This document shows, piece by piece, positions 16,781-45,353 of a stretch of DNA of 64,000 bases. This stretch comes from a virus: positions 1 through 64,000 of the IMG/VR virus record IMGVR_UViG_3300037808_001421, one strand, 5' to 3'. The notes under the pieces were generated by a model, which worked only from the letters and a program-made list of their open reading frames with translations, made no database searches and was not told where the DNA came from. Every line of letters starts with the position of its first letter. The first letter of the stretch is position 1. A program made the position numbers and the translations under genes.

Positions 16781-17202
16781 CTGCCAGGCCCCGGCTTTCT
16801 TGCAAACGGGCTGGTACCAGGCACCATTTCAATGCCAGTAGCCGCCAACTCGATGGACGCTTCGACGGCCTTCACCATCGCCGTCATGAGGTCTTCGAGG
16901 CCATTGTCTTTCACGTCGAACACTGTAGTAGCAGAGGTCGTGATCTGCTTCAGCGGACCCTTCAAACCAAACAGCGGAATCAACGTGACCGTGGTGTTGA
17001 CGCCCAGGAAGTCTCCGTTGCGCTCCCTAATCGGTTGCTGGAGTTCGAGCATCTGCCACACCTCGGTCAGGTACAGGGACCTGGAGGTGTCTTCTTTCCA
17101 GGCTTCGTAGTCGGCGTACGCTCCCGCTTCTTTGTCATCACCGTCACCCTCGAGGATGCCGTAGTAGTACTTTCCGCCGGGGGTAAGAACAACCAGTTTC
17201 AT
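16777..17202 (-). CDS. Hypothetical protein (141 aa)
   Basis: ATG at 17202 is preceded by AAGGTGG; an upstream extension to 17283 lies inside the helicase gene. The product begins [20 protein letters not shown] and has [16 protein letters not shown] in the middle, reminiscent of small Sm-like or OB-like beta barrels, and an acidic helix at the end. I do not assign a family. It is translationally coupled to the glycosylase and the SF2 helicase. Confidence 0.6.
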
Positions 17203-18617
17203 ACACAGTCCACCTTGCTGAGTTTGTAAGGCCAGTCGAACGCACGCAGAAACCTGCGCAACGACCGACCACACTTGACGCACGCGTTGATCTCGGTGTC
17301 CTCGAACACCCGAACCAGCGGAGCCAGCTTGCCTTCGAAGACTCGTTGGATGCGACCCCAGCCCTGCTGTAGGTCATTGGAGTTTGAGAACATCGTACAG
17401 ACGTAGAGAGTATCGAGCGGAGGCTTGTCTAGCCCTTCTCTCGATAGCTGAAAGGTTCCGAAGACTGGGTTGAAGGTGTCCAGGATGCCCATGCGAACTG
17501 ACTGGTCCGTAGCGCCTACGATGAGGCCCGCCTTGGTACCCGTCCGTTCTTCCCACATCTCTGCGAGCATCTTCAGCTGGTCAACGCTATGGCTAAGAAC
17601 TAAGACGTTCCTCCCAGCGTTGAGGTCGTCCGCCAGCGTGTCCAGGATGTAGTTGTTCCTCCAAACCAGGCACCCTACGTGAGAGCGAATCCTGGAGAGG
17701 TTCATATCTCCGTTCGTATCCCTGATTCCTAGCTCGTCTTCCGGAGTCAGTTCCCATTGCAGCTGGTGGAACAGTGTCTCGGGGATGAGCTCTTGCTGGA
17801 TGTCCGAGTAGAAGACCGGCCCGAGGTGGGACTGGTAGATGTTCTCCATCCTGTCTGTTCGGGTAGGTGTTGCTGTCAGTGCTAGGCGCTGGCCCCAGAA
17901 CAGGTCTGCTGAACCTACGAAGAAGGGCGCGCTCATGTGGTGGCCCTCATCGAAGATGACCAGTCCAAAGTGCTTACGGAACTTGGCGGACCATTCCGCT
18001 CTTCTCCCGGCCAGCGTATGAACTACGGCGAGGACGAGAGGCTTTCCCTCCCAGTCTGCTACCTGACCTTGGATGGTTCCGATGTCGTCCGGCGCCAGGT
18101 GTAGATGCTCTACCGCTCGAGCTACCCATTGCTCAAAGAGCGTGACGTTGTTGACTACGACGATGGTTGGGACCTGTAGATACGCAGCGTACTTGAGGCC
18201 CAGGACCGTCTTGCCTTTGCCGCACCCCAAGTTGAGGGTGCCCTTGCCGGCAGCCAGTAACGCTTCCCAAGCGGTCTGCTGGTTCGCATCACGAAGGTCT
18301 ACATGGTCGGCGAACTCCACCTGGGGGAAGGGTGGGCGGATTACCTGAGTGCGCGCGCCTAGCGTTTCAATGTCGTCGTGGCTAATGAAGTCGCGCGGGA
18401 CAATGATGTGGTCCGCGGTCTCATCCCACAGCCGAAGCTCTTTGCCCTTCAGACCGATGAGCATCTGGGTTTCCTCGTCGATGTCTTCGACGGCGCCCTG
18501 TTGTGCAAAGGTCAATGTCGCGCGGATCATGTCCACGTTCACGATGCCTTTGGGGATGATCAGGTTGTTGGTGCTGTACGCAAGCTGGGGGTCAAGTCGG
18601 TGGAACCTGATGCTCAC
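17199..18617 (-). CDS. SF2 DNA helicase, UvsW/XPB-like (472 aa)
   Basis: Start set at GTG 18617, which overlaps the upstream TGA (GTGA). Motifs: I, GCGKGKT at 131-137; II, FDEGHH (DEGH 223-226); III, LTATPTRTD (248-256); VI, QGWGRIQRV. This is the SF2 order with a compact core and an N-terminal domain (about 1-110) seen in XPB/UvsW-type enzymes that branch-migrate DNA and restart forks. A C-terminal CVKCG pair may bind metal. T4 UvsW works with UvsX, so a functional pair with the RecA-like protein is plausible. Confidence 0.88.
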   Translation of the reverse strand: MSIRFHRLDPQLAYSTNNLIIPKGIVNVDMIRATLTFAQQGAVEDIDEETQMLIGLKGKELRLWDETADHIIVPRDFISHDDIETLGARTQVIRPPFPQVEFADHVDLRDANQQTAWEALLAAGKGTLNLGCGKGKTVLGLKYAAYLQVPTIVVVNNVTLFEQWVARAVEHLHLAPDDIGTIQGQVADWEGKPLVLAVVHTLAGRRAEWSAKFRKHFGLVIFDEGHHMSAPFFVGSADLFWGQRLALTATPTRTDRMENIYQSHLGPVFYSDIQQELIPETLFHQLQWELTPEDELGIRDTNGDMNLSRIRSHVGCLVWRNNYILDTLADDLNAGRNVLVLSHSVDQLKMLAEMWEERTGTKAGLIVGATDQSVRMGILDTFNPVFGTFQLSREGLDKPPLDTLYVCTMFSNSNDLQQGWGRIQRVFEGKLAPLVRVFEDTEINACVKCGRSLRRFLRAFDWPYKLSKVDCV

Positions 18618-19027
18618 TTGAAGAGTTCCCGGAGCCCATCGCGGATGCGACGGGAGAGGACCTTCCGTTCTTTGGGGGGTAAGGTCAATTCGCAATCCTC
18701 CAAAAATTGGGCAACCACCTCGACGACCACACTGGTCGTTCCTGAGATGAAGCCGTTGGTCACTGCGGTGGGTATGTGAACGCCCAGGCGCTCGGCATGG
18801 GCGAGCTCGCGTAGAGTGCGTAGCTCGTCCTGCTCGTGTTCCTGGATGTCGTAAAGTTCGATTAGTTGCTGGAGCTTAGGTCGTGTAGGCGTTTGTTCGT
18901 CCAGCTCGTAAGCTTCGATGACACCGTTGGCCATGCTGAGCGTTTGCTCAACAGGCCAGCGTTTCTTTCTGCAGGCCGCCCGAGCGGTCGCGAGCCTGGT
19001 TCCTAGCTCGCGACCGTGGGCGCCCAT
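18614..19027 (-). CDS. HTH-XRE-like regulator (137 aa)
   Basis: Residues 8-65 fit a Cro/C1-type helix-turn-helix: LGTRLATARAACRKKRWPVE, SMANGVIEAYELDEQTPT, then LQQLIELYDI, followed by a linker DELRTLRELA as in many XRE family proteins. The C-terminal half (about 85-137) is a helical domain with a basic end. Being second in the leftward replication unit and next to the divergent switch to virion genes, it could control the switch between the two. That role is inferred from position. Confidence 0.65.
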   Translation of the reverse strand: MGAHGRELGTRLATARAACRKKRWPVEQTLSMANGVIEAYELDEQTPTRPKLQQLIELYDIQEHEQDELRTLRELAHAERLGVHIPTAVTNGFISGTTSVVVEVVAQFLEDCELTLPPKERKVLSRRIRDGLRELFK

Positions 19028-22230: not shown

Positions 22231-22958
22231 AGAAAGCTCAGTTGCAAGCCCTGGAGTCCGAGCTCATCGCAATCAAGGAGGCATCCTTCGCCAAGAACAT
22301 AGCCACCTTCGCCGGCCGGCTCAAGCCCGGGAACATCATGAAGGGGATGGGCGAGGGCTGGGATATGTCATCGCCCACAGGTCTCTTGAAGGGCACCACC
22401 GAGATGGGTAAGGACTTCAAGAAGGTGCTCGACACTCGGAAGAGTCAGATTGCAGCCGGTGCTGCCGATGGCGCTACGCTAGGGGACAAAGCCAAGGGAT
22501 TCCTGGCGAAGAACCTGGGCGCAGGCCAGTGGCTTCAGCCCGGCGCCAAGACCAGCCAGGGTGCTCAAGGCGTTGCCGAGCGTCTGTCTCGAGGCGGTTG
22601 GACAGGCGAAGGACGTCTCACCAAGTACATGCCTTTGGGGCAGAAGGGCGGGCACGCTCTGTACGCAGGGATGGCTGTTCCTGGTCTGGTGAAGTCCATG
22701 AAGCATGGGGATACCGGACAGGGTGGAGTCGCTGAACAGGCTGGCGGCTTGGCAGGATTCACAATTCCAGGTATTGCAGGTGCAGGCTTGGGCATGACTC
22801 CCTTGGTGATGGCGCTGGGTGCCTCCGAGGCTGGCAAGTACCTGGGGCGTAAAATTGACCAGCGGAACGACCCACAACCCTTCGAACGTCTTGAGCGAGA
22901 CCATCGTTCAGTCAAGTCAAACCTCATGAGACAAACACTAGAGACGGTACCGCGGTAA
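22227..22958 (+). CDS. Probable internal virion protein with targeting-like N-terminus (243 aa)
   Basis: ATG at 22227 overlaps the previous stop (ATGA). It begins MKKAQLQALESELIAIKEAS, one of the recurring N-terminal ELxxI helices of this cluster. The middle is Gly/Lys-rich. Residues about 170-205 are a Gly/Ala/Leu stretch (AGGLAGFTIPGIAGAGLG) that could insert in a membrane. No enzyme motif. Immediately upstream of the portal. Perhaps an injected or internal protein. Confidence 0.65.
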   Translation: MKKAQLQALESELIAIKEASFAKNIATFAGRLKPGNIMKGMGEGWDMSSPTGLLKGTTEMGKDFKKVLDTRKSQIAAGAADGATLGDKAKGFLAKNLGAGQWLQPGAKTSQGAQGVAERLSRGGWTGEGRLTKYMPLGQKGGHALYAGMAVPGLVKSMKHGDTGQGGVAEQAGGLAGFTIPGIAGAGLGMTPLVMALGASEAGKYLGRKIDQRNDPQPFERLERDHRSVKSNLMRQTLETVPR

Positions 22959-24973
22959 TGTCCTCAGATCTTCTACTCACGGGGTCCAGTGCGTCGAGGT
23001 TTACCTCTCGAGCTGGCCGGTCTCTTTCAGGTGAAGGCGTCACGTCCATCAGGTACCCCTCTCCCTTCTTCGACATCGCACACACGTACCTGCCGAACTC
23101 CACGAAGGATCTCCTCAAGTGGTGCAGGTTCTACTTCCTCACGAATCCGCTCATCAACGCGGTCTGCTACAAGATGGCCGAGTACCCGGTCACGGACCTG
23201 CTGTTCGACACCGAGGATACTGAGCTCAAACGCAGGTGGACTCACCTGTTTCGACACATCCTCAAGTTCAAGAAGTTCCAGGTCGAAGCAGGGCTGGACT
23301 ACAACACCTACGGCAACTGCTTCATCTCGATCTTCTACCCGTTCATCAAGTTCCTCATCTGCACGTCGTGCAGGAAGCGCGTTCGGGTTGATCGCCAGAA
23401 GTACACGTTCCGTGAGCATAGGTTCCATGGGACGTGCCGCTCCTGCCAGCACACGGGAGTGTTCAAAGTCTATGACCACTACATCCGGGCGGTGCAGGAC
23501 CTTCGACTCATCCGATGGAATCCTGAGTACATCACCATTCGCCACAATGAGGCGACGGGCGAGAGCCAGTACTACTACCGTATCCCGCCAGGTCTTGCGA
23601 ACGACGTCCGCATGGCGAAGCGGCACACCATCGAACGAACGCCTCAGATCTTTGTGGATGCTCTGAGGAAGAACAAGCAGCTGCTGTTCAGCAGGGACAA
23701 CATCTTCCACCTGAAGCGTCCGACCATCGCACAGAAGGACAAGGGCTGGGGTCTGCCAATGATCCTGCCCGTGCTGAAGGACACCTTCTATCTGCAGATT
23801 CTCAGGAAGGCGCAGGAAGCTATCGCTACAGAGCACATTGTACCGCTGCGCATTCTGTTCCCGCAGTCGGCATCGAACAGTGCTGACGTTTACTCAACGC
23901 TCAACCTGAGTAACTGGCGTAAGAAAATCGAGCAGGAGATCCTGCGCTGGCGTCTCGACAACAACTACATCCCCACGATGCCCATCCCGGTGGGTCAGCA
24001 GACCCTTGGCGGTGACGGACGAGCTCTCATGCTCGCGCAAGAGTACCGTGTCTGGGCGGAACACATCGTCGCAGGCATGGGCGTACCCATCGAGTTCGTC
24101 TTCGGCGGAATGCAGTACTCGGGTTCGAACGTCTCGATGAGAATCCTGGAGAATCACTTCCTGGATTACCGTGCAGACCATCAGGCGCTCATCCGCGACT
24201 TCCTCATGCCCAACATCGCAGCCTTCATGGGCTGGGAGAGGGTGCCGTTCCACTTCCGCAACTTCAAGATGGCGGATGACCTACAGCGCAACGCGTTCCT
24301 CCTGAACTTGAACCAGGCTGGCAAGGTTTCGGACAAGTCGTTGCTCGAGGAGAGCGACTTCGATTCCTTGGTCGAGAACAAGCTCATTGCTGAGGAGCAA
24401 AAGTACGAGCTCGAGAACCAGAGACAGTCCGCAGTCGCCCAGGCACGTATTCAGGGTGAGTCTCAACTGGCGCTGGTCAAGTACCAGAACCGGGCGATGA
24501 TGATGCAGCAGCAGGCGCAGGGCGCCATGCAGCCTGTGGGCCCGAACCAGGCGCCAGGTATGCAGGGCATGGTCAGCCCAGAAGCCATGGGACAAGGCAT
24601 GGTCGCGCAGCAGGGCATGGCTAACATGACCGGCGAAGCGACTGCCGGCCAGCCTATGGAGCCGCCTGAGCAGGACCCTGCGTCCGCGGCCAATGGCGCC
24701 ATGCCAGGAGGCATGGCGTCTCCGCTCAACGAAGAGAGCGAATTCGGCGCCGACCTGGTTAGCATTGCCAAGAAGATCGCGGCACGTCTCGACCAGATGC
24801 CTGATGACCAGAAGCAATCTCACCTGATTGACCTCCAGCAACAGCAGCCTCAGTTGTACAGCTTTGTCCTCCAGTTGCTGCAGCAATCCGCTGGCGCGCA
24901 TGTACCTTCTCAAGCACAGCCGTTGCCCGAGCAGAGACCGCCTCGCCGCGGGCCTGAAGCCGCAGCAGTCTAA
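22958..24973 (+). CDS. Portal protein with embedded zinc ribbon (671 aa)
   Basis: The size, gene position and helical core match phage portals, which form the dodecameric vertex for DNA packaging. Features include KWCRFYFLTNPLINAVCYKM near the start, LKRPTIAQKDKGWGLPMIL (typical of portals where a loop describes neighbouring domains), and a C-terminal Gln/Met/Pro/Ala-rich tail (about 510-600) followed by a helix. Unusual is a zinc ribbon at about 134-164, CTSCRKRV and CRSCQHTG, inserted in the clip/wing region. The tail may be disordered and internal to the head. Confidence 0.78.
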   Translation: MSSDLLLTGSSASRFTSRAGRSLSGEGVTSIRYPSPFFDIAHTYLPNSTKDLLKWCRFYFLTNPLINAVCYKMAEYPVTDLLFDTEDTELKRRWTHLFRHILKFKKFQVEAGLDYNTYGNCFISIFYPFIKFLICTSCRKRVRVDRQKYTFREHRFHGTCRSCQHTGVFKVYDHYIRAVQDLRLIRWNPEYITIRHNEATGESQYYYRIPPGLANDVRMAKRHTIERTPQIFVDALRKNKQLLFSRDNIFHLKRPTIAQKDKGWGLPMILPVLKDTFYLQILRKAQEAIATEHIVPLRILFPQSASNSADVYSTLNLSNWRKKIEQEILRWRLDNNYIPTMPIPVGQQTLGGDGRALMLAQEYRVWAEHIVAGMGVPIEFVFGGMQYSGSNVSMRILENHFLDYRADHQALIRDFLMPNIAAFMGWERVPFHFRNFKMADDLQRNAFLLNLNQAGKVSDKSLLEESDFDSLVENKLIAEEQKYELENQRQSAVAQARIQGESQLALVKYQNRAMMMQQQAQGAMQPVGPNQAPGMQGMVSPEAMGQGMVAQQGMANMTGEATAGQPMEPPEQDPASAANGAMPGGMASPLNEESEFGADLVSIAKKIAARLDQMPDDQKQSHLIDLQQQQPQLYSFVLQLLQQSAGAHVPSQAQPLPEQRPPRRGPEAAAV

Positions 24974-26003: not shown

Positions 26004-29000
26004 ATGACAGAGTTCAATCCTCAAAAAGAGTTCGACAACCTCAAGAGCTCGCTCACCGACACCATCAAGGATTACTTTCCCCTCGAGGGCGCCCGCCGCA
26101 CACTGCGCGCAAAGCGTGTCTGGGTCGATGATAACAAGGACATCGACGACGTCACTGAGCAGAAGGCCGCGAAGATAAAGGGTCGTAGCTGGACGGTGCC
26201 TCTCAAAGCAGAGGTAGAGCTCGTAGACAACAAGACAGGCAAGGTCGTAGACAACAAGACGGTCTCCCTCGCTCAGCTGCCCAAGATCACCCGAAGGTAC
26301 GGGTACATCGTCAAAGGCAACGAGTGGTCCCCCATCAACCAGTTTCGGCTGAAGTCAGGTGTCTACACTCGAGAGAAAGACAACGGCGAGCTCGAGTCGC
26401 AATGGAACCTGGCCAAGGGCTATGGGTTCAAGATGCAGTTCGATCCGGACCCTAAGTCTCGGAAGATGAACATCACCCACGGGACGACGAACACGCCTCT
26501 GTACCCGGTGCTCAAAGCCATTGGTGTGGACGACGACGCCATTGAGAAGGCGTGGGGCAAAGAGCTCCTTACCGCCAACAAGAAGTACGAGGGCAGCCCC
26601 AGGCAGATGCGTCAGCTGTTCAAGACTCTGACGGGCAATGCCCCTCCTGAGAAGATGGAGGAAGTCACTGCCGGCATCCGTGAAGCCTTCGGCAAGACCG
26701 AGTTGCGTCCGGATTCTACCAAGCTGACGCTGGGCAAAGGGTTCGATACAGTCAACGGCTCCGCGCTGCTGACGGGTAGTAGGAAGATCCTCGACATCTC
26801 CAAGGGGAAGGCAGATCCTGATGACCGTGACAGCCTGCAGTTCAAGGACCTGTTCGGAGTGGAAGACTTGCTCACCGAGCGCATAGGTAAGGACCGTCGC
26901 TTCAAGATTCTCAATCGCATGAAGAAGAAGGTTGATAGCGTGAAGAAGGTTCACGACGTCATCTCTCCCGACACATTCGGCAAGCACGTCACGTCCTTCT
27001 TCACGAGCTCGACGCTCGCTGACATGCCGAAGCAGCAGAACCCTGTCAGCTTCCTCGGTGAAGCTCGCAAGACCACCATTGGTGGGCAACACGGGCTGGA
27101 GAGCTCGAGGGCTATCTCGCTCGAGGCCCAGTCCATCAACGCTAGCCATGTTGGGTTCTTAGACCCAGTCAAGACTCCTGAGAATGACCGCATCGGTACA
27201 GTGCTGCAGATGTCCGCGGCGTCAACCAAGAAGGGGAAGACTATTCGTACGCGCGCCTTCAACATGAAGACGGGCAAGCTCGAGTACATCGAGCCGCACA
27301 CGGCATTGAAGTCGCGGCTAGCTTTTCCTGACCAGTACACCTGGAAGAACGGAAAGCCCACAGCCATACATGACCGCGTGAAGATCACGGATGACGAGGG
27401 TGAGATCCGTAGCAGTGCCCCTAAGGACGTAGACTACGTTCTTCGTTCGACCAAGGGCCTCTTCGACCTGTCCACGAACATGATCCCTTTCCTGTCGTCA
27501 GACCAGGGCAACCGTACGATGGTCGCCGCGCGTCAGCTCGAGCAGGCTGTTTCCCTGAAGCACCGCGAGCGCCCGCTGGTACAGACCAAGTCAGAGGGGT
27601 CAACGACTTTCGAAGCCGTGATGGGGAAGCTCAACTCTCACGTTGCTCCCGTGGGTGGGAAAGTCACGAAGGTCACGAAGGACAACATCATCATCAAGGA
27701 CGCCAGTGGCAAGTCTAAGAAGGTTCCGATCTACAACGACTTCCCTCTGAACGACAACCACACCTTCATGACTGCCACTCCTGTCGTGAAGGTCGGTGAC
27801 ACTGTCGAGAAGGGCAAGCTGCTCGCGGATACCAACTACACCAAAGGTGGAGACCTGGCGCTAGGCACCAATCTCAACGTGGCGTACACGCCCTTCAAAG
27901 GATACAACTTTGAGGACGGTATCGTCATCTCAGAGAACGCGTCTAAGAAGCTGACCTCTGAGCACATGCACCGTGAAGGCATCAAGAAAGAGCGGGGCAC
28001 AGTTCTCAGTAAGAAGAGGTTCCTGGCTGAGACTGCGGGCCGGGTTACTAAAGAGCAGGCGGCGAAGCTCGATGATGAAGGTGTCGTCAGAGAGGGTACT
28101 CGACTCGTTCACGGCGACATCATGATAGGTGCGCTGAAGGAAGAGGCTGCCAGCCGGGAGAGGCAGGCGCTCGCGCAGTTCTCAAAGGGTAAGATCAAGC
28201 CCGTCGTTGCGCGGCCCCGCACCTGGGACAAGGAGTACGAAGGCACTGTCTCCCAGGTTGTCAGGCACGGTAAGGACACTACGATCTACGTGAAGACTGA
28301 GACCCCCGCGGGCATTGGTGACAAGATCGTCGGCAGGCACGGCAACAAAGGCATCATCTCTATGGTCCTGCCTGACCACGAGATGCCCCACACCAAAGAC
28401 GGTGAGTCGATGGACGTACTGCTGAATCAGTCAGGCGTTCCGACCCGCATCAACTTGGGGCAGGCTCTCGAGACCGCGGCAAGTAAGATTGCCAAGAAGA
28501 CAGGCAAGACTTACGTCGTCAACAACTTCGACCCCAAGAACCCCGACTACACAAGGGGGATGCTCAAGGAGCTCAAGGATCACGGCCTATCCGACCAGGA
28601 GGAGTTGATCGATCCCCAAACTCGTAAGAGCTACGGCTCTGTTCTCGCCGGCAAGCAGTACATCATGAAGCTCGAGCACCAGGCCGAGAAGAAGATGAAG
28701 AACAGGTTCCGCGGACCGTACAGCGTGAACCGCTCACCCAAGGGTGGTGGTGACTCCGGCGGGCAGCAGATGGACATGTTCGGGCTGACGGCCCTGCTGG
28801 CGCACGGTGCCAAGGAGAATATCAGGGAGTCTCAGACCTCGCGTTCGGACATGAACGATGACTTCTGGATGTCCATCCAGGCGGGCGACCCGATCCCTGC
28901 TCCCAAGATTCCGTTCGCGTACAAGAAGTTCGAGGGCCTGCTACGCGCCGCCGGCGTCGACGTTGAGAAGAACGGTAACGAGCTTCAGCTTGCCCCCTTG

Positions 29001-32000
29001 ACCGACTCTCAGGTCTTGAAGATGAGCAATGGTGAACTCAAGCGACCCGAGCGTAGGCTCGAGGGCAACGCCAAGCCCGCCGAGGGTGGCTTGTTCGACC
29101 CGGAGGTGACAGGTACTCGCTGGCCGAATGGTGAGATGGGCGACAAGTGGAGCCACATCAAGCTGGCGAAGCGTGTACCCAACCCCGTCTTTGAGCAGCC
29201 AGTAAGAACACTGCTGGGCATGACGGGCAAGCAGTTCAACAGCGTCATGGCGGGTACAACCGCGCACGAAGGTGGTACTGGACCTGACGCTATCGTGGCG
29301 TCACTCAACAAGATCAACACCAAGAAAGAGCTCGACCGTCTTCAGACTTCGGCCAAGGCTCTGCGTGGCGCCAAGCTGGACACCGCGAACAAGAAGATTC
29401 GACTGCTGCGTGCGTTGAACGAAAAGAAGTTGAACCCCAAGGCCGCATACACGCTGGGGAACGTTCCCGTGCTGCCCCCGACGATGCGACCCATCTCTCT
29501 GCTGGACAGTGGGGACTTGAATGAAGACGACACAACAGGGCTGTACGCCAACGTTGGGCAGGTCAACTACCAGCTGAAGAACCTGGACCCGCGGCAGCCC
29601 ATAGAGGACAAGCACGAGCTCCACTCTTCGCTCTACGATGGTGTGAAGGCTCTGATGATGACGGGCATGTCGCAGCATGGTCGGCACCGCAGCGGCATCA
29701 TCGATACGATTTCAGGTGCTCAGAAGGGCAGCCCCAAGCACGGTTACTTCCAGAAGAAGATCATGGGCCGGCGCCAAGACCTGTCGTCCCGTGGTGTCAT
29801 CATCCCGGAACCGAGTCTGAGCCTTGACGAGGTTGGGCTGCCTGCGAAGGCGGCTCGAGAAATCTTCAAGCCTTTCGTCGTACGTCGCCTCGTCCACCAA
29901 GGTACGCCTTACTTGCGCGCGCAAGAGGCCGTTCGAGAGAACAAGCCTGAGGCGGAGAAGGCTCTCGAACTCGAGATGAACGAGCGCCCAGTACTCCTCA
30001 AGAGAGACCCCGTCCTGCACAAGTACGGTGTTCAGGCGTTCCGAGCTCGGAAGGTGAAGGGTCGAGCGATCAAGATCCACCCGCTGGTGACCGCAGGCTA
30101 CAACGCAGACTTCGATGGCGATACGATGAGTGCGTTCGTGCCCATCTCTCAAAAGGCTGTTCGTGAAGCCAAGAGGATGATGCCCTCCAAGAACTTGTTC
30201 AGCCCGTCTGATGGCGGCATCACGAATGTCCCGACGCAGGAAGCGGTCCTCGGTCTGCATCACCTAACCAAGAAGGGTAAGAGGACAACGCGCAGGTTCA
30301 AGACTCCTGCGGAAGCAGCATCAGCAGCGTCGAGGGGTGAAATCGGAGTCACGGATGTGGTGACTGTCGACAACACTAAAGCGCTGACTATGCCTATGGT
30401 GAAGACAGCCGCGGCCAAGGGCGGAACGAGGACTACGGTAGGCCGTCTGATGGTTCAAGCAGCTCTGCCCAAGAGCGCACGGAGCGACGCCTTTCTGACC
30501 AGGGACGACGCTACACTGAACAAGAGGAAGGTCAAGGAGCTGCTCACCCGCGTGGCTGACAGTGACCCAGACAGCTTCGCCAAATCTGCAGATAAGCTGA
30601 AGGACCTAGGTAACTACCAATCGACAGGTACATCCTTTGGTCTGAAGGACCTGGTGTCAGATAACGTTCCTCGAGACAAGATTCTCAACAGCATCAAGCC
30701 TGCGGAAAAGAGGATCCTCGACAACAAGAAGCTGACCAAGAAGCAGCGGGATGAACAACTGGTGTCTCTGTACCAAGGTGCAGACAAGGAGATTCAGAAG
30801 GTCACTCGAGCTCGCGCTGAGAAGAGTGACAACCGCATGTACGACCTGGTTCGTTCGGGTGCTCGAGGTAACTGGAACCAGTATCGCCAGATGACAGTGG
30901 CACCGATGCTGGCAGTGGACTCTCGAAGCAAGGTCATCCCCACGTTGATCCCCAAGGCATATTCAGAGGGTCTTGACGTCGGCTCGTACTGGGCCGCTAT
31001 GCACGGCGCGCGCATGGGTACGATCAGCCGGGTGCTCGGAACAGCACTGCCGGGCAAAGAGGCCAAGGCCATCACGCAGTCGACCATCAACCAGGTGATT
31101 ACCTCGGAAGATTGCGGAACAACACGCGGCCTGCGTATGGGTACCAAGGACGGAAACGTCGTGGACCGTGTTCTCGTGGCACCCGTGACCTTGGGCAGCC
31201 GCGGAGGTAAAGAGAAAGGTTCGATCGCAGCAGGTACGATCGTCACCCCCGATGTCGTGGATCGCTTGCGCAACAACAAGGTCAAAGAGGTGTCTGTACG
31301 CACGCCGTACAAGTGCGAGGCAGGCCACGGCATGTGCAGCAAGTGCTTCGGTTTGAACGAGCGCGGTGATTTCCACGAGAAGGGCGTGAACGTAGGTGTG
31401 CTCGCCGCTCAAGCTATCGGTGAGCCTCTTGCCCAGATGTCGATGAACGCTTTCCATGAAGGTGGTGTCGCCGGCGCCAAGGGCTCGAGCGCTGTGAACA
31501 GGTTCAAGCGGATGGAGAACCTGACGCACTTCCCCAAGAAGCTGGCAGGCTCCGCGACTCTTGCGCTCGCCGGTGGCAAGGTCACTAAACTCGTCAAGGA
31601 CCAGGCTACGGGTGGTCACCGTGTCAGTGTCGGTGACCAGGAGCATTACCTCCCTCCACGTAGCGCGGTGCGAGTGAAGAAGGGCCAGACCATCAAGAAG
31701 GGTGACGCCCTGACCATGGGCCCAAAGAACCCTCACGAGATGCTGCCGCTCACGGGCCTCGAGTCTGTGCAGAGGTACCTCACGGAGGAGCTCTCGGACG
31801 CGTACGACAACCGTGAAGGCATCCACCGGAGGAACACCGAAGTCTTCGTCCGGTCGCTAACGAACTTGGGCAGGGTCAAGGACCCAGGGCACCGAGACGA
31901 CCTGCTTCACGGGGATCCGGTGCCCATCTCAGAGATTCGTGCATTCAACCGCGGCCTCGGGTCAGGCAAGAAGCCTGTGCAGGTGGAGCCTTACTTGCGC

Positions 32001-32195
32001 GGCACCAACTTGCTGCCCAAAGAGATGCAGACGGACTGGATGGCCCGTATGCAGCACTCCGGGTTGAAAGATACGATCCTCACCGGCGCTGCCCGTGGCT
32101 GGAAGTCGAACCTTCATGGTACACATCCTGTACCGGGCATGGCGTACGGCAAGGAGTTTGGCAAGGGCACCGACGACGAGCCCTGGTCCTACTGA
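26004..32195 (+). CDS. rpoBC: Single-chain beta-beta' multisubunit-type RNA polymerase (2063 aa)
   Basis: The N-terminal half is beta-like: IVKGNEWSPINQFRLKSGV, HVGFLDPVKTPEN near 381, GYNFEDGIVISE near 633, and GDKIVGRHGNKG near 772 with both lysines of the active site. From about residue 1010 it is beta'-like: GELKRPERR, then a short path to FQKKIMGRRQDLSSRGV near 1255, and YNADFDGD at about 1366-1373, the metal-binding triad. Bridge-helix/trigger-loop region follows near 1654 (EGLDVGSYWAAMHGARMG). The second zinc site is intact (SEDCGT, then CEAGHGMCSKC). The first beta' zinc ribbon is absent. It should transcribe phage genes; packaging in the virion is possible from its position. Confidence 0.95.
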   Translation: MTEFNPQKEFDNLKSSLTDTIKDYFPLEGARRTLRAKRVWVDDNKDIDDVTEQKAAKIKGRSWTVPLKAEVELVDNKTGKVVDNKTVSLAQLPKITRRYGYIVKGNEWSPINQFRLKSGVYTREKDNGELESQWNLAKGYGFKMQFDPDPKSRKMNITHGTTNTPLYPVLKAIGVDDDAIEKAWGKELLTANKKYEGSPRQMRQLFKTLTGNAPPEKMEEVTAGIREAFGKTELRPDSTKLTLGKGFDTVNGSALLTGSRKILDISKGKADPDDRDSLQFKDLFGVEDLLTERIGKDRRFKILNRMKKKVDSVKKVHDVISPDTFGKHVTSFFTSSTLADMPKQQNPVSFLGEARKTTIGGQHGLESSRAISLEAQSINASHVGFLDPVKTPENDRIGTVLQMSAASTKKGKTIRTRAFNMKTGKLEYIEPHTALKSRLAFPDQYTWKNGKPTAIHDRVKITDDEGEIRSSAPKDVDYVLRSTKGLFDLSTNMIPFLSSDQGNRTMVAARQLEQAVSLKHRERPLVQTKSEGSTTFEAVMGKLNSHVAPVGGKVTKVTKDNIIIKDASGKSKKVPIYNDFPLNDNHTFMTATPVVKVGDTVEKGKLLADTNYTKGGDLALGTNLNVAYTPFKGYNFEDGIVISENASKKLTSEHMHREGIKKERGTVLSKKRFLAETAGRVTKEQAAKLDDEGVVREGTRLVHGDIMIGALKEEAASRERQALAQFSKGKIKPVVARPRTWDKEYEGTVSQVVRHGKDTTIYVKTETPAGIGDKIVGRHGNKGIISMVLPDHEMPHTKDGESMDVLLNQSGVPTRINLGQALETAASKIAKKTGKTYVVNNFDPKNPDYTRGMLKELKDHGLSDQEELIDPQTRKSYGSVLAGKQYIMKLEHQAEKKMKNRFRGPYSVNRSPKGGGDSGGQQMDMFGLTALLAHGAKENIRESQTSRSDMNDDFWMSIQAGDPIPAPKIPFAYKKFEGLLRAAGVDVEKNGNELQLAPLTDSQVLKMSNGELKRPERRLEGNAKPAEGGLFDPEVTGTRWPNGEMGDKWSHIKLAKRVPNPVFEQPVRTLLGMTGKQFNSVMAGTTAHEGGTGPDAIVASLNKINTKKELDRLQTSAKALRGAKLDTANKKIRLLRALNEKKLNPKAAYTLGNVPVLPPTMRPISLLDSGDLNEDDTTGLYANVGQVNYQLKNLDPRQPIEDKHELHSSLYDGVKALMMTGMSQHGRHRSGIIDTISGAQKGSPKHGYFQKKIMGRRQDLSSRGVIIPEPSLSLDEVGLPAKAAREIFKPFVVRRLVHQGTPYLRAQEAVRENKPEAEKALELEMNERPVLLKRDPVLHKYGVQAFRARKVKGRAIKIHPLVTAGYNADFDGDTMSAFVPISQKAVREAKRMMPSKNLFSPSDGGITNVPTQEAVLGLHHLTKKGKRTTRRFKTPAEAASAASRGEIGVTDVVTVDNTKALTMPMVKTAAAKGGTRTTVGRLMVQAALPKSARSDAFLTRDDATLNKRKVKELLTRVADSDPDSFAKSADKLKDLGNYQSTGTSFGLKDLVSDNVPRDKILNSIKPAEKRILDNKKLTKKQRDEQLVSLYQGADKEIQKVTRARAEKSDNRMYDLVRSGARGNWNQYRQMTVAPMLAVDSRSKVIPTLIPKAYSEGLDVGSYWAAMHGARMGTISRVLGTALPGKEAKAITQSTINQVITSEDCGTTRGLRMGTKDGNVVDRVLVAPVTLGSRGGKEKGSIAAGTIVTPDVVDRLRNNKVKEVSVRTPYKCEAGHGMCSKCFGLNERGDFHEKGVNVGVLAAQAIGEPLAQMSMNAFHEGGVAGAKGSSAVNRFKRMENLTHFPKKLAGSATLALAGGKVTKLVKDQATGGHRVSVGDQEHYLPPRSAVRVKKGQTIKKGDALTMGPKNPHEMLPLTGLESVQRYLTEELSDAYDNREGIHRRNTEVFVRSLTNLGRVKDPGHRDDLLHGDPVPISEIRAFNRGLGSGKKPVQVEPYLRGTNLLPKEMQTDWMARMQHSGLKDTILTGAARGWKSNLHGTHPVPGMAYGKEFGKGTDDEPWSY

Positions 32196-32199
32196 GTAG

Positions 32200-33375
32200 A
32201 TGGGCACTGAAACCGAATTCGTACCCGCCAACATCGAGACGGGTCGGATCATCAACGTCAACACACGGGACTGGACCGTCGACGTGGTGACCATCTACGG
32301 GGACAAGCGTCACCTCGACATCCCAGTATCTTCTCCGTACTTGCACTTCATCAATGGTGAAGGCATCTACTCCATGCCTGAGGCAGGCGCTATCTGTTGG
32401 GTGTGTCAGCCGAGCGACGGACTGTGGGCACGCCCGTTCGTCATGGGCTTTCAGCCCCCAGTAGACGAACGGACGAGCTCGGTCACAGGAAACCAACTGG
32501 GTGAGTTCGCTGCTGGGCGCCCCAACCTGAACCCCGGCGACATCATGATGCGCACTCGGGATGAGAACTTCCTCATCCTGCGTAGAGGAGGCGTTGTTCA
32601 AATAGGTGCAACGCCTCTCGCGCAGCGCCTCTACCTACCAATAGACAACATCATCCGGGATATGTGTGGGCAGTACAACATGTTCAACCTCGCCGGCGAG
32701 ATGACGTGGACGGTGGACCGGACAGAGAACTCCATCGACGGGCACACCACCACGCACTGCGCCATTCGAGTGAAGGGTCACGCTGACGAGCCTCTCCACG
32801 TAGCCGACCTGACCATTGGCTCTCACGTTGATGAGGACCTAGGGTTGCAGTTGACGATTTACGACACTGGCGCCGAGGACCGCATCGCACAAGTGGATTG
32901 CCAGATCACCAAGACGGGTGACGTCAAGTGGACTATCCAAAAGGACTTCACGGTAGACGCGCAGGGCATCATCGACCTGAAGGCGCAGGGTAACGTATCC
33001 TTAGAGTCCGCTGCGGCCGCGGCCGCGCTCAAGGGCCAGACAGACGTGACCATCGAGGCAGTGACCGGCATCCTTGCTGCTATCGCAGGTACCAAAATCT
33101 CCCTGACGGCTCCTGCCCTCGAGATTCTTGCTCAAGCTATAAGCATCGGTGCTGAGAAGAACGGGGTCAAACCTGCCGTTTTGATTGGTGGATCTTCAGC
33201 CATCGAACCACTTGTTCTTGGAACCAAACTCCGCGTCGCCTTGGAAGCCTTGTGTGATGCCCTCATGTCAACGGTACCTGCGCCCGGTCAATCGCTTGGG
33301 ATAGTTCAACCAGGATTTGCTGCGGTAAAAGCGCAGCTAGCCTTTATACTCAGTGCCAAGCACCGGACCTCTTAG
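32200..33375 (+). CDS. Baseplate spike / gpV-like puncturing protein (391 aa)
   Basis: The first 90 residues fit the OB-fold found in gp5/gpV proteins (GRIINVNTRDWTVDVVTIYG, YSMPEAGAICWVCQPSDG, then RPFVMGFQPP). The remainder is repetitive beta-strand material (KDFTVDAQGIIDLKAQGNV, TKISLTAPALEILAQAISIG) like the trimeric beta-helix or spike stem. This places it at the tip of the contractile tail. It begins five bases after the RNA polymerase gene with no clear ribosome binding site. A lysozyme domain is not visible. Confidence 0.72.
   Translation: MGTETEFVPANIETGRIINVNTRDWTVDVVTIYGDKRHLDIPVSSPYLHFINGEGIYSMPEAGAICWVCQPSDGLWARPFVMGFQPPVDERTSSVTGNQLGEFAAGRPNLNPGDIMMRTRDENFLILRRGGVVQIGATPLAQRLYLPIDNIIRDMCGQYNMFNLAGEMTWTVDRTENSIDGHTTTHCAIRVKGHADEPLHVADLTIGSHVDEDLGLQLTIYDTGAEDRIAQVDCQITKTGDVKWTIQKDFTVDAQGIIDLKAQGNVSLESAAAAAALKGQTDVTIEAVTGILAAIAGTKISLTAPALEILAQAISIGAEKNGVKPAVLIGGSSAIEPLVLGTKLRVALEALCDALMSTVPAPGQSLGIVQPGFAAVKAQLAFILSAKHRTS
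33345..33350 (+). promoter_or_regulatory. -10-like box TATACT before a virion gene
   Basis: TTTATACT lies inside the 3' end of the spike gene, 34 bases before ATG 33385, which has its own TAGGAG ribosome binding site. It could give an internal promoter with a short leader; a chance occurrence is also possible. Confidence 0.35.
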
Positions 33376-33384
33376 GAGCTCATA

Positions 33385-35502
33385 ATGACGCAGCCTCTCT
33401 TTCTCGACCAAGCCCTCGACTTCGGAACCAAGACCGCCGGCACGCTCACTGCGATGAGCGACGACGGTGAGCGATGGGGCGAAGAAGTCCTCAGCGAAGC
33501 CTACCGCCAGATCTCGTTCCTGTCGGACTTCGACGTCAACGTGGCTATCGATAAAGAGGACCAGGAGCGTGGCTACGCTTGGGGTTCCATCGAAGTGCGG
33601 CCGCGCTCGGACATGAGTCCTGAGGAAGAAGGCGGCCGTCCGCTGGCGACGGTGCACATCCCGGTCATCATCAAGGACCAGATGTTGTCGCCGCTGGACC
33701 TCTTCCTCGACATCGACGAGAAGCGCTACCAGCCCCTGACCGAGAGCCGCATGCGCAAAGCGCTCTTCCGTCCTGAGACCTTCGACGCCATTCGCACGGC
33801 GCCGCCGCAGCCCAGTCTCTACAACGAGCTCCAGCCTCCGCTGGGCTCGAGCGTTGGCGGCAGCATCAAGACAGGTGCGTTGGTCGACAAGGGCGTCGGC
33901 GCCGTCATGGGTGGCGTGGTCAAAGGGTCTGGGAAGCTCGCCATGGGTGTGAACATGGGTTCGAACGTGCTGCGCCAAGGTGCAAAGCTGGCGCATGTTC
34001 TGATGACTCCGCTGTTGCCGCAGCTTCAGGGCCGGGTGCGCTCAGACCACATCGCTCGCATCAAGACAGCTGTGATGGACGACGCGCTACATGCGCAGAT
34101 TCTCAACGCTGATGAGGGCGTCCGCGCGGCGTTCAGCTCTGCACTGAGCCTCGAGCCCCCTGACTTGGTCAAGACCGCGGCCGCGCTGTTCCCCAAGCCG
34201 AACGTCGTGCAGGTGAGCAAGGCCGGCAGGGGCAAGTACCGGGTGAAGTACGCCAACACTGGCATGTACGCGCCGGCGCAAGAGCAGGTGGGTCCCGAGC
34301 AGGCGCAGGCCGTACTTGGATCCCCCGATCTGGTGCAGCGGATGGAGGAAGATGGCTCGGTTACCATGAGTCCTGACGCCGCCATCAAGGAGACGTTGGA
34401 CACCGGCGACATCAAGAACGTCGATCAGTTCGGTACCTGGCGGGTGCAGGACAAGATGGGGAACCAGCTCGTCGGCTGGGCGTTCCCGCAGGTCATGAGC
34501 ATGGATCTGCAGCCCCTGCCTATGGTGCTGTTCACCAACGGCTCGCAGTACGCCATCGCCGAGACGATCGCTGGTCGCCTGGTAGGTAAGAGCACTGACC
34601 TGCCGAAGAGCCCACAGCCCGCGGGTTACGGCTTCCTCTATCACGTGGATGATGGGGGAGCTCGAGCCTTCGTCCCGATGACCATTCGGGCGACCTTCAC
34701 CAACCCGGCAGGCACTTTGTCCTACCAGGCCGTGAACGACATGGGCGAGATCGTGACCTTCAACATGGTCGAGGGGTTGAAAACCATCGCCAAGGTGGGC
34801 GAAGGTACTTATGCCGTTCCGCTGAGTTTCCGCTGGCTTCCTCTCAAGGGCCAGACCGAGCTCATCGAGACGGCGGACATGTTCACCAAAACCGCTAACG
34901 CAGACTTCGTCCACAAGGTGTTCCTCCGTGGCGAGAAGGGAGCACACAGCTACAGCTTCGATGGGCCTCCCCTCACGAAGCTCGCCAGTGAAGAGAAGAC
35001 GTTCCTGAACCGCGCAGATGCGGAGTTCCTCGGTGTTTCTCTCGGCATTTCGCCGGGACACATCAAGGTAGCTCTCGACAAGGCGGCCCTCGGTAAGCGC
35101 CTCGAGTTCAACGCGTGTCGCATGCTCACCACCGTCAAGGAGAAGATGGCGGCGGCGCGTGAGGCAGTCAAAGAAGACCTGCTCGACCTCGAGTACCCCA
35201 TTCGCAACTTCAACCTCATCAAAGAGGCGTCAGTTCTTACGGATGCTCTGACCGCGGACAAGATCCTCGGCCTGGGCTTCCTCAACGCGGAGAACGTGGC
35301 GACCTTCGTGGACATGCTGCCTGGGCTCGAGCTGGCTTCCAGCCGTATCGCAGAGCTCTTGGTGTCCTCCCGTCTTGGGTTGGAGGAGGTACCGGAGATC
35401 GCACTCGAGCGGATGCTCGCAGCGATGAACGACGTCATCCTCGGGCTGAACAAGCTCAAACAACGGGAGATCACGTTCGCAGCAGACCAAGAGAGGGTCT
35501 AG
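33385..35502 (+). CDS. Large virion-cluster protein (705 aa), function unknown
   Basis: ATG with a TAGGAG ribosome binding site. The N-terminal 130 residues look alpha/beta (ATVHIPVIIKDQMLSPLDLF), then a Gly/Lys stretch (VGAVMGGVVKGSGKLAMGV), and a beta-rich central region about 270-500 (YAIAETIAGRLVGK, GYGFLYHVDDGGARAFVP). The C-terminal 150 residues are helical. The x-K-[TL]-A motif recurs (FGTKTAG, LVKTAAA, MFTKTAN, LTKLAS). No known domain. Likely a structural or ejected protein; the motif hints at head localisation. Confidence 0.65.
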   Translation: MTQPLFLDQALDFGTKTAGTLTAMSDDGERWGEEVLSEAYRQISFLSDFDVNVAIDKEDQERGYAWGSIEVRPRSDMSPEEEGGRPLATVHIPVIIKDQMLSPLDLFLDIDEKRYQPLTESRMRKALFRPETFDAIRTAPPQPSLYNELQPPLGSSVGGSIKTGALVDKGVGAVMGGVVKGSGKLAMGVNMGSNVLRQGAKLAHVLMTPLLPQLQGRVRSDHIARIKTAVMDDALHAQILNADEGVRAAFSSALSLEPPDLVKTAAALFPKPNVVQVSKAGRGKYRVKYANTGMYAPAQEQVGPEQAQAVLGSPDLVQRMEEDGSVTMSPDAAIKETLDTGDIKNVDQFGTWRVQDKMGNQLVGWAFPQVMSMDLQPLPMVLFTNGSQYAIAETIAGRLVGKSTDLPKSPQPAGYGFLYHVDDGGARAFVPMTIRATFTNPAGTLSYQAVNDMGEIVTFNMVEGLKTIAKVGEGTYAVPLSFRWLPLKGQTELIETADMFTKTANADFVHKVFLRGEKGAHSYSFDGPPLTKLASEEKTFLNRADAEFLGVSLGISPGHIKVALDKAALGKRLEFNACRMLTTVKEKMAAAREAVKEDLLDLEYPIRNFNLIKEASVLTDALTADKILGLGFLNAENVATFVDMLPGLELASSRIAELLVSSRLGLEEVPEIALERMLAAMNDVILGLNKLKQREITFAADQERV

Positions 35503-36332
35503 TGCACCCATCCACCTACTACATCAAGTTCTTACTCGCCCGTAGCCATGGCACGGACGAGCCTGAGGACTGGGACAGTGTCAAAGACCATCTCTCGCAG
35601 CTAGGGCTCCCTCGTCTATGGGAGCCTGCCTTCGACCTGGCAAACGGGGTGTTTGCGCCTCCTATCCCGTTTCGCTTCAATGCCAAGACCCACAAGAGCA
35701 CCGTCGCGTTCATGCGCGATGAGAAGATCTACACCATGTGGAAGAAGGACAAGGAGACCAAAGCTGCACTTCGGATCCTCGAGCGTCCTGCCATGCGGGA
35801 GGTCATCCAAGTACTCATCATGGGTGGCATCGAAGCGGATATCGTTCGGAACCGCATCATAGAGAGGTTCCAAGAGACCCTGTCGGCCAAGTCGATCGAC
35901 GTGTACCGACACTACTTCTGGAACACGGACCTCACCACTATGCAGGAGTGGACAGCCATCCTGCGCGGCGACCCGATGTCCGACCACTACATCGCCGCCC
36001 GGGGCGGCAGCCAGCAGCAGGCGTTGTTCAGGGCAGGCTTCAACCCGCTCATCGAACCGAAGGCTGCGCTCAGGGAAGCGTTCAGGTCTTTGGCTATGCG
36101 AGTCGAGGCCACTCGCAACCTGCCAGACACCAAAGAGACCAACAACATGCTGTGCGCTCTCACCAAAGAGATGACGGCGTTGTACCAGGTGCTCAAGGCC
36201 GACGGCGAAGGCGTCGGCGATGTGGCGAAGGGCCTCAAGAAGTTCAAGATAGCTTTGGACGAAACTCCGGCAGCGTCCATCTTGCAATTGGCAGGCAAGG
36301 GCAACTACAGTCGCTCTGGTGCCAACGAATAA
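35502..36332 (+). CDS. Hypothetical helical protein (276 aa)
   Basis: GTG start at 35502 overlaps the upstream TAG. It is mostly helical with EDWDSVKDHLSQLGLPRLW at the start, ALRILERPAMREVIQVLIMG in the middle and GDVAKGLKKFKIALDETP near the end. No nucleotide-binding or metal motifs are seen. It overlaps the zinc-ribbon gene downstream by 14 bases, so the two are probably made together. It may be a packaging or baseplate component; the sequence does not decide. Confidence 0.6.
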   Translation: MHPSTYYIKFLLARSHGTDEPEDWDSVKDHLSQLGLPRLWEPAFDLANGVFAPPIPFRFNAKTHKSTVAFMRDEKIYTMWKKDKETKAALRILERPAMREVIQVLIMGGIEADIVRNRIIERFQETLSAKSIDVYRHYFWNTDLTTMQEWTAILRGDPMSDHYIAARGGSQQQALFRAGFNPLIEPKAALREAFRSLAMRVEATRNLPDTKETNNMLCALTKEMTALYQVLKADGEGVGDVAKGLKKFKIALDETPAASILQLAGKGNYSRSGANE

Positions 36333-43550: not shown

Positions 43551-45353
43551 ATGCTGCTTGACGTCGCGAAGAAAGTCCAGGCGAGGCTATCGGAGAGCCG
43601 CTTCGGTGACCTCACTCTCGAGTCTTTTGATAACCCGTATGACTACGTTGAAGAGAACGACGAAGAGAAGGTAGACGTCCTTCCTTCCGAGTTCACTGAG
43701 TACGCCGTCCGAGTACCCGTGGCGGGTGGTCTCGAGGACTTCAGGTTTGCTGATCGCAGGTACCTCAGGCCCATTTACGACACGCCATCCAAGCGCAGGG
43801 TCGTCATTGCAGGCCGTCAGGTTGAGAAGTCAACTCTCCTAGGCAACCAGTCGCTGGCATACATGGCGTTGATCCCTCACTTCAGGGTTCTATACGTCTC
43901 CACGTCGCATACCCAGACCAAAGTTTTTAGCCGTGACAGAATCAAGGAGCCGATGGAGGTCTCCCCCATCCTGGCGCAGTTCACCAGCACGCAGCTTCTT
44001 TCTAACGTCCTGGAGAAGAAGCTCGTCAACGGTTCTCAAATCACGCTCCGGTTCGCGTTCCTCAACGCCGACCGTTGTCGTGGTATCCCGGCGGACTACG
44101 TCAACATCGACGAGTTCCAGGACATCATGATTGAGAACGTACCGGTCATCGAGGAGTGTGCGTCTCACTCGAAGTTTCGGATGTTCACGTATTCGGGCAC
44201 GCCCAAGTCTCTTGGCGGCTCGTTGGAGCATTACTGGTCTAAGTATTCAACACAGAACGAGTGGGTTGTACCTTGCCGCTCGCACACACCGATGCACTGG
44301 AACATTCTCAGTGAGGACAACATCGGTAAGAACGGTCTCATCTGCGACAAATGCAGCAGACCTATTCATGCAATGGACCCGGACGCTCAATGGGCGTCCA
44401 TGAACCCAGAACCTGACGTAGAGCTCCCCTTTGAGGGCTTCAGGCTACCGCAGCTAATGGTCCCGTGGATCGAGTGGCGGGACATCCTGGACAAGCAGCG
44501 CAAGTACAGCCGCGCCAAGTTCTACAACGAGGTGCTTGGCCGCAGCTACGACTCAGGTACCCGCCCTCTTACGCAACAAGACCTGAGAGGGAACTGCAAC
44601 AACGAGCTCTCCATGGATGCTCTTCCAGAAGTGAAGAAGATCATCGGTCAGATCCAGGTCTGCATGGGCATCGACTGGGGTACTGGAGAGAGCTCTTACA
44701 CCGTCATCACGCTGGGTGCGTACCTGCCTTTCGCACCGGACAGGTTCACCATCTTCTATTGGAAACGCTGTGAGGGCCGAGAGGCGGAGCCGAAGGAACA
44801 GCTCAGCATCATCCGTAAGCTGGTCAACGACTACAATATCAGGCACATCGGAGCTGACTATGGCGGCGGGCACTGGCCGAATGATGAATTGCTGCGGGAC
44901 TACGGTTCCAACCGTGTCCACAAGTACCAGTGGGTAGGTAACGTAAAGAAGAAGATCAGCTACGAGCCGAGCCTGGGTATCCCGAGGTTCTTATGTCACC
45001 GCACGGAGATCATGAGTGACTACTTCAACGCGCTCAAGCGTGGTGATGTGTTCATGTTCCCTCGCTGGCCTGAGTTCAAGGACCCCTTCGCTGCGGACCA
45101 CATGAACATCTTCAGCGAGTTCAACGACAGGCTGCGGATGAACGTCTACAAGCATGCTCCTGGTATGCCGGATGACTCCGCGCACTCGGCCATCTTCTGC
45201 TTCCTGTGCTCTTTCTTCTTCAGGAAGAGGCCAGACGTGGTCCTGCCTCGCAAAGAACTGCAACGGCAGAACGAGATCTACGACGGAAGCGTTGGGGACG
45301 TCGAGTCGATGGACATCGATCCCGAATACACCTACGACAATAATCAGAGCTAG
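43551..45353 (+). CDS. terL: Large terminase subunit TerL (600 aa)
   Basis: ATPase domain: Walker A AGRQVEKST at 87-95 (canonical GRQxGKS with Glu for Gly), Walker B VNIDEFQD near 184-191, and coupling motif YSGTPK. A CxxH and CxxC set (VPCRSHTPMHWN, LICDKCSRPIH) after the ATPase looks like an embedded zinc ribbon. Nuclease domain: GIDWGTGESS near 373 and HIGADYGGGHWP near 425, with a last acid near 540 (GMPDDSAHS). It packages DNA through the portal. No small terminase gene is obvious next to it. The 5' region overlaps a divergent promoter. Confidence 0.9.
   Translation: MLLDVAKKVQARLSESRFGDLTLESFDNPYDYVEENDEEKVDVLPSEFTEYAVRVPVAGGLEDFRFADRRYLRPIYDTPSKRRVVIAGRQVEKSTLLGNQSLAYMALIPHFRVLYVSTSHTQTKVFSRDRIKEPMEVSPILAQFTSTQLLSNVLEKKLVNGSQITLRFAFLNADRCRGIPADYVNIDEFQDIMIENVPVIEECASHSKFRMFTYSGTPKSLGGSLEHYWSKYSTQNEWVVPCRSHTPMHWNILSEDNIGKNGLICDKCSRPIHAMDPDAQWASMNPEPDVELPFEGFRLPQLMVPWIEWRDILDKQRKYSRAKFYNEVLGRSYDSGTRPLTQQDLRGNCNNELSMDALPEVKKIIGQIQVCMGIDWGTGESSYTVITLGAYLPFAPDRFTIFYWKRCEGREAEPKEQLSIIRKLVNDYNIRHIGADYGGGHWPNDELLRDYGSNRVHKYQWVGNVKKKISYEPSLGIPRFLCHRTEIMSDYFNALKRGDVFMFPRWPEFKDPFAADHMNIFSEFNDRLRMNVYKHAPGMPDDSAHSAIFCFLCSFFFRKRPDVVLPRKELQRQNEIYDGSVGDVESMDIDPEYTYDNNQS

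What the first reader, a model, noticed from the sequence alone, without database searches (positions are those of the whole stretch)
26004..32195. Phage-encoded beta-beta' RNA polymerase as one polypeptide
Seen: one uninterrupted 2063-residue ORF has beta motifs (GYNFEDGIVISE, GDKIVGRHGNKG) followed by beta' motifs (NADFDGD, bridge helix, second zinc site with correct Cys spacing). Known: phages of the phiKZ group have split, divergent multisubunit polymerases, and crAss-like/YonO polymerases are single chain but much more divergent; fused rpoB-rpoC is known in Helicobacter. A canonical-looking fusion with both halves in a phage virion cluster is unusual. Inference: it transcribes phage genes independent of the host core.
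Basis: partly seen in the sequence, partly recalled or inferred. Interest (0 to 1): 0.92.

Follow-up and report, generated by a model that had tools for sequence, protein, structure and literature searches.

The report
Phage RNA polymerase in one chain
This virus of bacteria carries the two big catalytic halves of a bacterial-style RNA polymerase joined into one protein, and the same joined enzyme turns up in well over a hundred related phages, apparently as a distinct, overlooked branch of phage transcription machines.

Summary
ORF 26004-32195 encodes 2063 residues that run as RpoB, then RpoC, joined almost without a linker and without the N-terminal zinc site of beta'. It is not an assembly join: of 231 IMG/VR locus entries fetched with RNAP queries, 205 (122 distinct sequences) hold the same fusion in one ORF. 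The catalytic Lys pair and Asp triad are invariant. AlphaFold gives one confident fold (core pLDDT 88.6, pTM 0.81). The setting is a myovirus structural cluster (portal, RNAP, TerL, capsid, sheath).

The family forms its own clade (support 100/100), outside the sampled bacterial groups. It is also distinct from a second phage clade with separate genes in the order beta'-beta. That second clade, not this one, matches the published mReC lineage better (T4-type capsid in 4/18 long records versus 0/27 here).

Isolated relatives exist: Salmonella phage Arash and Vibrio phage D69. They carry the same beta-beta' junction but split beta' at the cyanobacterial rpoC1/rpoC2 point. Arash's fused protein was the most abundant in its virion proteome (PMC10585845).

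Best reading: a single-chain, alpha-less virion RNA polymerase. Activity and independence from host RNAP are not shown. New variant of a known kind.

The parts
26004..32195 (+). Fused beta-beta' RNA polymerase gene, 2063 aa
26004..28964 (+). beta moiety (residues 1-987); residues 1-600 fold like bacterial beta (TM 0.79-0.84 normalised to the query)
28965..28979 (+). beta/beta' junction, about 5 residues (...AGVDVE-KNGNE-LQLAPLTD...); no linker and no acidic tail as in some bacterial beta
28974..32192 (+). beta' moiety (residues 991-2063), lacking the N-terminal zinc ribbon
28317..28352 (+). GDKIVGRHGNKG, beta barrel catalytic lysines K774/K782 (each 100% in 74 aligned homologues)
30102..30122 (+). 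NADFDGD, Mg2+-binding Asp triad D1369/D1371/D1373 (100%)
30369..30371 (+). Residue ~1456: where beta' is split in isolates Arash, D69 and in L089; same place as the cyanobacterial rpoC1/rpoC2 boundary
30963..31073 (+). Bridge helix (residues ~1654-1690)
31113..31346 (+). Second zinc site C1704, C1771, C1778, C1781 (bacterial spacing)
31395..31475 (+). Trigger-loop N-terminal region (residues 1798-1824)
22958..24973 (+). Portal protein; profile of 63 homologues matches annotated Arash portal gp204 (E 1.6e-141)
32200..33375 (+). Conserved downstream neighbour (62 of 70 loci with room), unknown function
33385..35502 (+). Conserved downstream neighbour (66 of 70), unknown function
35502..36332 (+). 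Conserved downstream neighbour (60 of 70); weakly matches an Arash ORF
43551..45353 (+). Terminase large subunit
53365..54489 (+). Major head protein (phrog_2522, E 2e-8); no match to the mReC capsid family PF07068
59458..62688 (+). Tail sheath (phrog_279): myovirus
17199..18695 (-). XPB/Rad25-like SF2 helicase, divergent from the RNAP cluster; matches in 21 of 27 records

Best explanation
The gene makes a complete bacterial-type, two-barrel DNA-dependent RNA polymerase core in one chain. Shown: beta and beta' are joined head to tail with almost no linker, and the fusion is conserved and catalytically intact across a large phage family. Inferred: because the halves are covalently joined, the enzyme assembles without the alpha dimer that bacteria need. 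It is made late with the structural proteins, packaged into the virion and delivered with the DNA, where it starts phage transcription. Promoter choice probably comes from a phage sigma-like factor in at least part of the family. Host RNAP may still be used for some genes.
For: Sequence: RpoB and RpoC families over the whole length, all catalytic motifs invariant. Structure: residues 540-1700 predicted as one body, pLDDT 88.6, pTM 0.81; over 1000 PDB matches, the top ones bacterial beta'; residues 1-600 match bacterial beta, TM 0.79-0.84. Conservation of the fusion: 205 single ORFs, 122 distinct, and no free-standing beta or beta' gene in the clade. No second RNAP locus and no alpha gene (control rang in 13 of 14) in 25 of 25 long records. 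Late/virion cluster: portal upstream in 60 of 62 loci, TerL downstream in 44 of 54. Virion: the Arash homologue gp206 was the most abundant virion protein by spectra (3516) with gp216 (beta' C part) 1210 and sigma gp10 467 (PMC10585845). Sigma-70 region 2 or 4 matches over cut-off in several long records.
Against: No activity has been measured for any family member. The Arash particle preparation also held replication enzymes (ribonucleotide reductase, ligase, primase), and its authors allow that abundant infection proteins were carried over. No convincing sigma factor lies in this 65-kb fragment: the only hit is a weak HTH ORF, and most long records show none over the cut-off. The RNAP position in the structural block fits packaging but does not prove it.
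Confidence: 0.65

Rival explanations
1. Active single-chain RNAP that is non-virion: made during infection for middle or late genes, with early genes read by host RNAP.
For: Only one RNAP copy per genome, unlike phiKZ with a virion and a non-virion set; the Arash virion preparation contains other replication enzymes.
Against: Gene sits in the structural cluster next to portal; the Arash homologue outnumbers the major capsid protein in spectra.
Confidence: 0.22
2. A member of the published mReC lineage (Weinheimer and Aylward 2020), i.e. already described, with the fusion simply not mentioned.
For: Both are deep phage clades with readily alignable beta and beta'; a fused contig (L240) comes from the same metagenome, 3300017989, as mReC1 and mReC3; some members' terminases match PF03237; one joint phage clade is not rejected, p-AU 0.10.
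Against: mReC is described as encoding beta and beta' subunits with capsid PF07068. That capsid rings in 4 of 18 records of a separate-gene clade and in 0 of 27 here; two separate-gene contigs, 149 and 106 kb, come from the same metagenome. The two clades are separately supported.
Confidence: 0.3
3. Recent capture of a host's fused rpoBC (as in Helicobacter or Wolbachia).
For: Best NCBIfam model is the fused beta/beta' one; a planctomycete MAG also has a fused rpoBC.
Against: 528 bits against a cut-off of 5372; the phage family is its own clade (100) on a long branch, and the fused planctomycete groups with other planctomycetes.
Confidence: 0.02
4. Assembly or frame artefact joining two genes.
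For: Single metagenomic contig.
Against: 122 distinct homologues with the same ungapped junction; three isolated phages carry the same junction.
Confidence: 0.01

Closest known systems
Salmonella phage Arash gp206+gp216 and Vibrio phage D69 VPHD69_0261+0264
   Same: Same beta-beta' junction in one ORF, about 32% identical, also downstream of a homologous portal gene; Arash protein found in virions (PMC10585845)
   Different: beta' is cut at residue ~1456 into a second gene; annotated only as 'beta subunit' or 'hypothetical protein'
mReC phages (Weinheimer and Aylward 2020, PMC7481178)
   Same: Deep phage clade with readily alignable bacterial-type beta and beta'
   Different: Described as two subunits with T4-type capsid PF07068; the best-matching clade here has separate genes in the order beta'-beta
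phiKZ/AR9-type jumbo phage vRNAP and nvRNAP (PMC7598289, PMC7824862)
   Same: Phage-encoded two-barrel RNAP without alpha; virion form exists
   Different: Split into four or five polypeptides, two paralogous sets, far more divergent
crAss-like gp66, P23-45 gp64/gp96, YonO (PMC10770324)
   Same: Both barrels in one chain; crAss and P23-45 have virion forms
   Different: Very divergent, little detectable RpoB/RpoC sequence similarity
Helicobacter/Wolbachia fused RpoBC (NCBIfam PRK09603, PRK14844)
   Same: Head-to-tail beta-beta' fusion
   Different: Cellular, about 2840-2890 aa, nested among bacteria

Membership tests
Bacterial-type two-barrel RNA polymerase core | DxDxD triad in the beta' barrel and two lysines in the beta barrel | tested here: met
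   100% conserved in 74 aligned members
Bacterial-type two-barrel RNA polymerase core | Overall beta/beta' fold | tested here: met
   AlphaFold plus Foldseek; active-site distances not measured
Bacterial-type two-barrel RNA polymerase core | Template-dependent RNA synthesis | not testable with these tools
   needs purified protein
mReC (multimeric RNAP-encoding Caudovirales) | Beta and beta' outside the cellular clades | tested here: met
mReC (multimeric RNAP-encoding Caudovirales) | Major capsid protein of PF07068/VOG11186 | tested here: not met
   0 of 27 records including the window; the same search rings in 4 of 18 separate-gene records
mReC (multimeric RNAP-encoding Caudovirales) | Terminase of PF03237/VOG01069 | tested here: inconclusive
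   7 of 27 records, not the window; VOG not available
mReC (multimeric RNAP-encoding Caudovirales) | RNAP falls in the mReC clade | tested here: inconclusive
   separate clade in the trees; joint phage clade not rejected, p-AU 0.10; published sequences not at hand
phiKZ-type jumbo phage RNAP | beta and beta' split over four or more polypeptides, two paralogous sets | tested here: not met
   one ORF, one RNAP locus in 25 of 25 records
Highly divergent single-subunit RNAPs (crAss, YonO, P23-45) | Single chain | tested here: met
Highly divergent single-subunit RNAPs (crAss, YonO, P23-45) | RpoB/RpoC similarity not readily detectable by sequence | tested here: not met
   NCBIfam rpoC 500 bits, rpoB 397 bits
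Cellular fused RpoBC (PRK09603/PRK14844) | Score over curated equivalog cut-off | tested here: not met
   528 vs 5372 and 493 vs 4632 bits
Virion RNA polymerase | Packaged in the particle and used for early transcription | not testable with these tools
   homologue abundant in Arash particles (PMC10585845); this phage is not isolated

The most novel reading that the evidence does not exclude
A phage transcription lineage separate from mReC and phiKZ, of ancient origin, in which one self-assembling alpha-less polypeptide is at once the virion enzyme and the only phage RNAP, so that the whole phage programme runs on a single-chain bacterial-type polymerase.
Probability: 0.3. Interest if true: 0.85.

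Novelty: new variant of a known kind. Interest (0 to 1): 0.64.

Why it matters
Bacterial RNAP needs alpha to bring beta and beta' together. A natural one-chain enzyme that still looks bacterial gives a simple system to test how far the core can be reduced, and it links the divergent single-chain viral enzymes to the cellular ones. It also suggests that deep-branching phage RNAPs fall into at least two clades with different gene architecture and different capsids. Isolated relatives make it testable now. Its rifampicin contact residues are replaced, so a drug-insensitive phage transcription signal is predicted.

Tried and rejected
A single-protein scan of viral contigs found nothing; alignment queries were needed. 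My first working idea was that the family simply equals mReC; the scan with separate-gene beta' queries and the capsid search made that the less likely reading. Phage-collection hits to Staphylococcus, Enterococcus, Listeria and Salmonella 'phages' with rpoB/rpoC look like host DNA contamination and were not used. The weak sigma region 4 hit in the window (45350-45727, minus) is better explained as an HTH_17 protein. A beta' tree rooted with RPB1-like sequences from viral contigs did not resolve the order of bacteria, the separate-gene phage clade and the fused clade. A second AU test (bacteria as one clade) did not finish. T7-type RNAP search gave nothing, but its control did not ring either. 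Literature searches for a described fused phage rpoBC found none in the held library; subscription journals and preprints are not held.

Full report
What is there. The window is positions 1-64000 of a 65,482-base linear virus record, probably a fragment of a larger genome: relatives with the same gene lie on contigs of up to 208 kb. ORF 26004-32195 is one frame of 2063 codons. Pfam assigns RpoB domains to residues 343-914 and RpoC domains to 1109-1962. NCBIfam aligns rpoB up to residue 988 and rpoC to 1087-2006. The best solved relatives by sequence are bacterial beta' chains.

Junction. Bacterial beta ends in ...LQSLxLDV and beta' begins ...IRIGLASPEQIR. In the window these read ...LLRAAGVDVE-KNGNE-LQLAPLTDSQV, so about five residues join them. 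The beta' N-terminal zinc ribbon is missing; the second zinc site has the bacterial spacing. In 65 of 74 members the segment 975-1010 has the same length, and conservation there equals the family average.

Family. Alignment-based scans of IMG/VR gave several hundred relatives. Of 231 locus entries fetched, 205 hold the whole fusion in one ORF (122 distinct); 16 more run off a contig end. The few broken ones are mostly interrupted by in-frame TGA. In L060, L243 and L067 these fall largely at invariant tryptophan columns, as expected if TGA is read as Trp; one (L246) falls at a variable column. Several members carry intein-like inserts at catalytic motifs. The catalytic lysines and Asp triad are 100% conserved.

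Relatives in culture. Salmonella phage Arash and Vibrio phage D69 have the same beta-beta' junction but end the first protein at window residue ~1456 and encode the rest of beta' in a second gene. This is where NCBIfam's cyanobacterial rpoC1 and rpoC2 models meet. Both share a homologous portal gene upstream. The Arash paper reports gp206, the fused part, as the protein with the most spectra in virions, with gp216, a sigma factor and a helicase also present; its authors note possible carry-over (PMC10585845).

Structure. AlphaFold with 62 family members predicts residues 540-1700 at pLDDT 88.6 and pTM 0.81; the best PDB matches are bacterial beta' chains. Residues 1-600 (pLDDT 92.3) match bacterial beta with TM 0.79-0.84. 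Coordinates are not exported, so active-site distances were not measured.

Setting. In relatives, portal lies upstream in 60 of 62 loci, three conserved genes follow, and TerL follows in 44 of 54. The window also has a head protein, tail sheath and a replication block. In 25 long records there is one RNAP locus each and no alpha. Sigma region 4 scores over the cut-off in 7 and region 2 in 4. An XPB/Rad25-like helicase is found in 21 of 27 records, in most of them 6-14 kb from the RNAP and divergent from it. A Rad25-like helicase has been linked to RNAP in phiKZ-group phages (PMC7824862).

Relation to known lineages. In concatenated trees the fused family plus Arash/D69 is one clade (100), apart from all bacteria sampled. 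A separate scan found a second phage lineage with beta' (~900 aa) followed by beta (~1010 aa) as two genes in 46 of 80 loci. Four of its 18 long records carry the PF07068 capsid, the capsid reported for mReC, and two of its contigs come from the metagenome of mReC1 and mReC3. The fused family shows PF07068 in 0 of 27. I therefore think the published mReC corresponds mainly to the separate-gene clade, but a fused contig from that same metagenome exists (L240) and I could not read their supplementary list. With an RPB1-like outgroup the fused clade keeps 100/100 and the separate-gene clade 98/94, while their order relative to bacteria is unresolved; a joint phage clade is not rejected (p-AU 0.10).

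Mechanism. Shown: one conserved, catalytically intact, bacterial-type core in one chain in a structural cluster. Inferred: covalent fusion replaces alpha-assisted assembly; late synthesis, packaging and early transcription. At rifampicin contact positions the window has D516K, H526E, R529K, S531T, R540S and N568R (E. coli numbering), so drug-insensitive transcription is predicted.

Verdict. Real, widespread, not described as a fusion in the literature I could search, but clearly within the known two-barrel RNAPs: a new variant of a known kind.

Noticed in passing
L114:8042-15901: A planctomycete MAG contig has rpoB and rpoC as one 2620-aa ORF, a cellular fusion outside Helicobacter and Wolbachia; it groups with other planctomycetes in the tree.
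   Followed up: partly
L044, L058, L078, L079, L085, L317, L189: Roughly 330-460-residue intein-like inserts at catalytic motifs of the phage RNAP, such as after GRHGNK and inside NADFDGD; L317 seems to hold two.
   Followed up: partly
L060:9950-16021, L243:7923-13901, L067:9947-16018: In-frame TGA codons within the fused RNAP gene, many at invariant Trp columns, suggesting TGA read as Trp in some members.
   Followed up: partly
L335-L409: A second phage RNAP clade with separate genes in the order beta'-beta, some with T4-type capsids; probably the published mReC.
   Followed up: partly
window 17199-18695, minus: XPB/Rad25-like helicase divergent from the RNAP cluster, found in 21 of 27 records; a possible transcription partner.
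   Followed up: partly
L089:8168-12748: A 183-kb contig binned in a Thermoguttaceae MAG carries an Arash-type RNAP ending at the same split point; host link or binning error.
   Followed up: no
window 47545-50103: 852-aa protein with head maturation protease and minor head protein matches, and an InPase-type (PF18823) domain in the middle.
   Followed up: no
phage collection records H4, H5, H7-H11: Deposited 'phage' records whose rpoB/rpoC hits look like host chromosome contamination.
   Followed up: no
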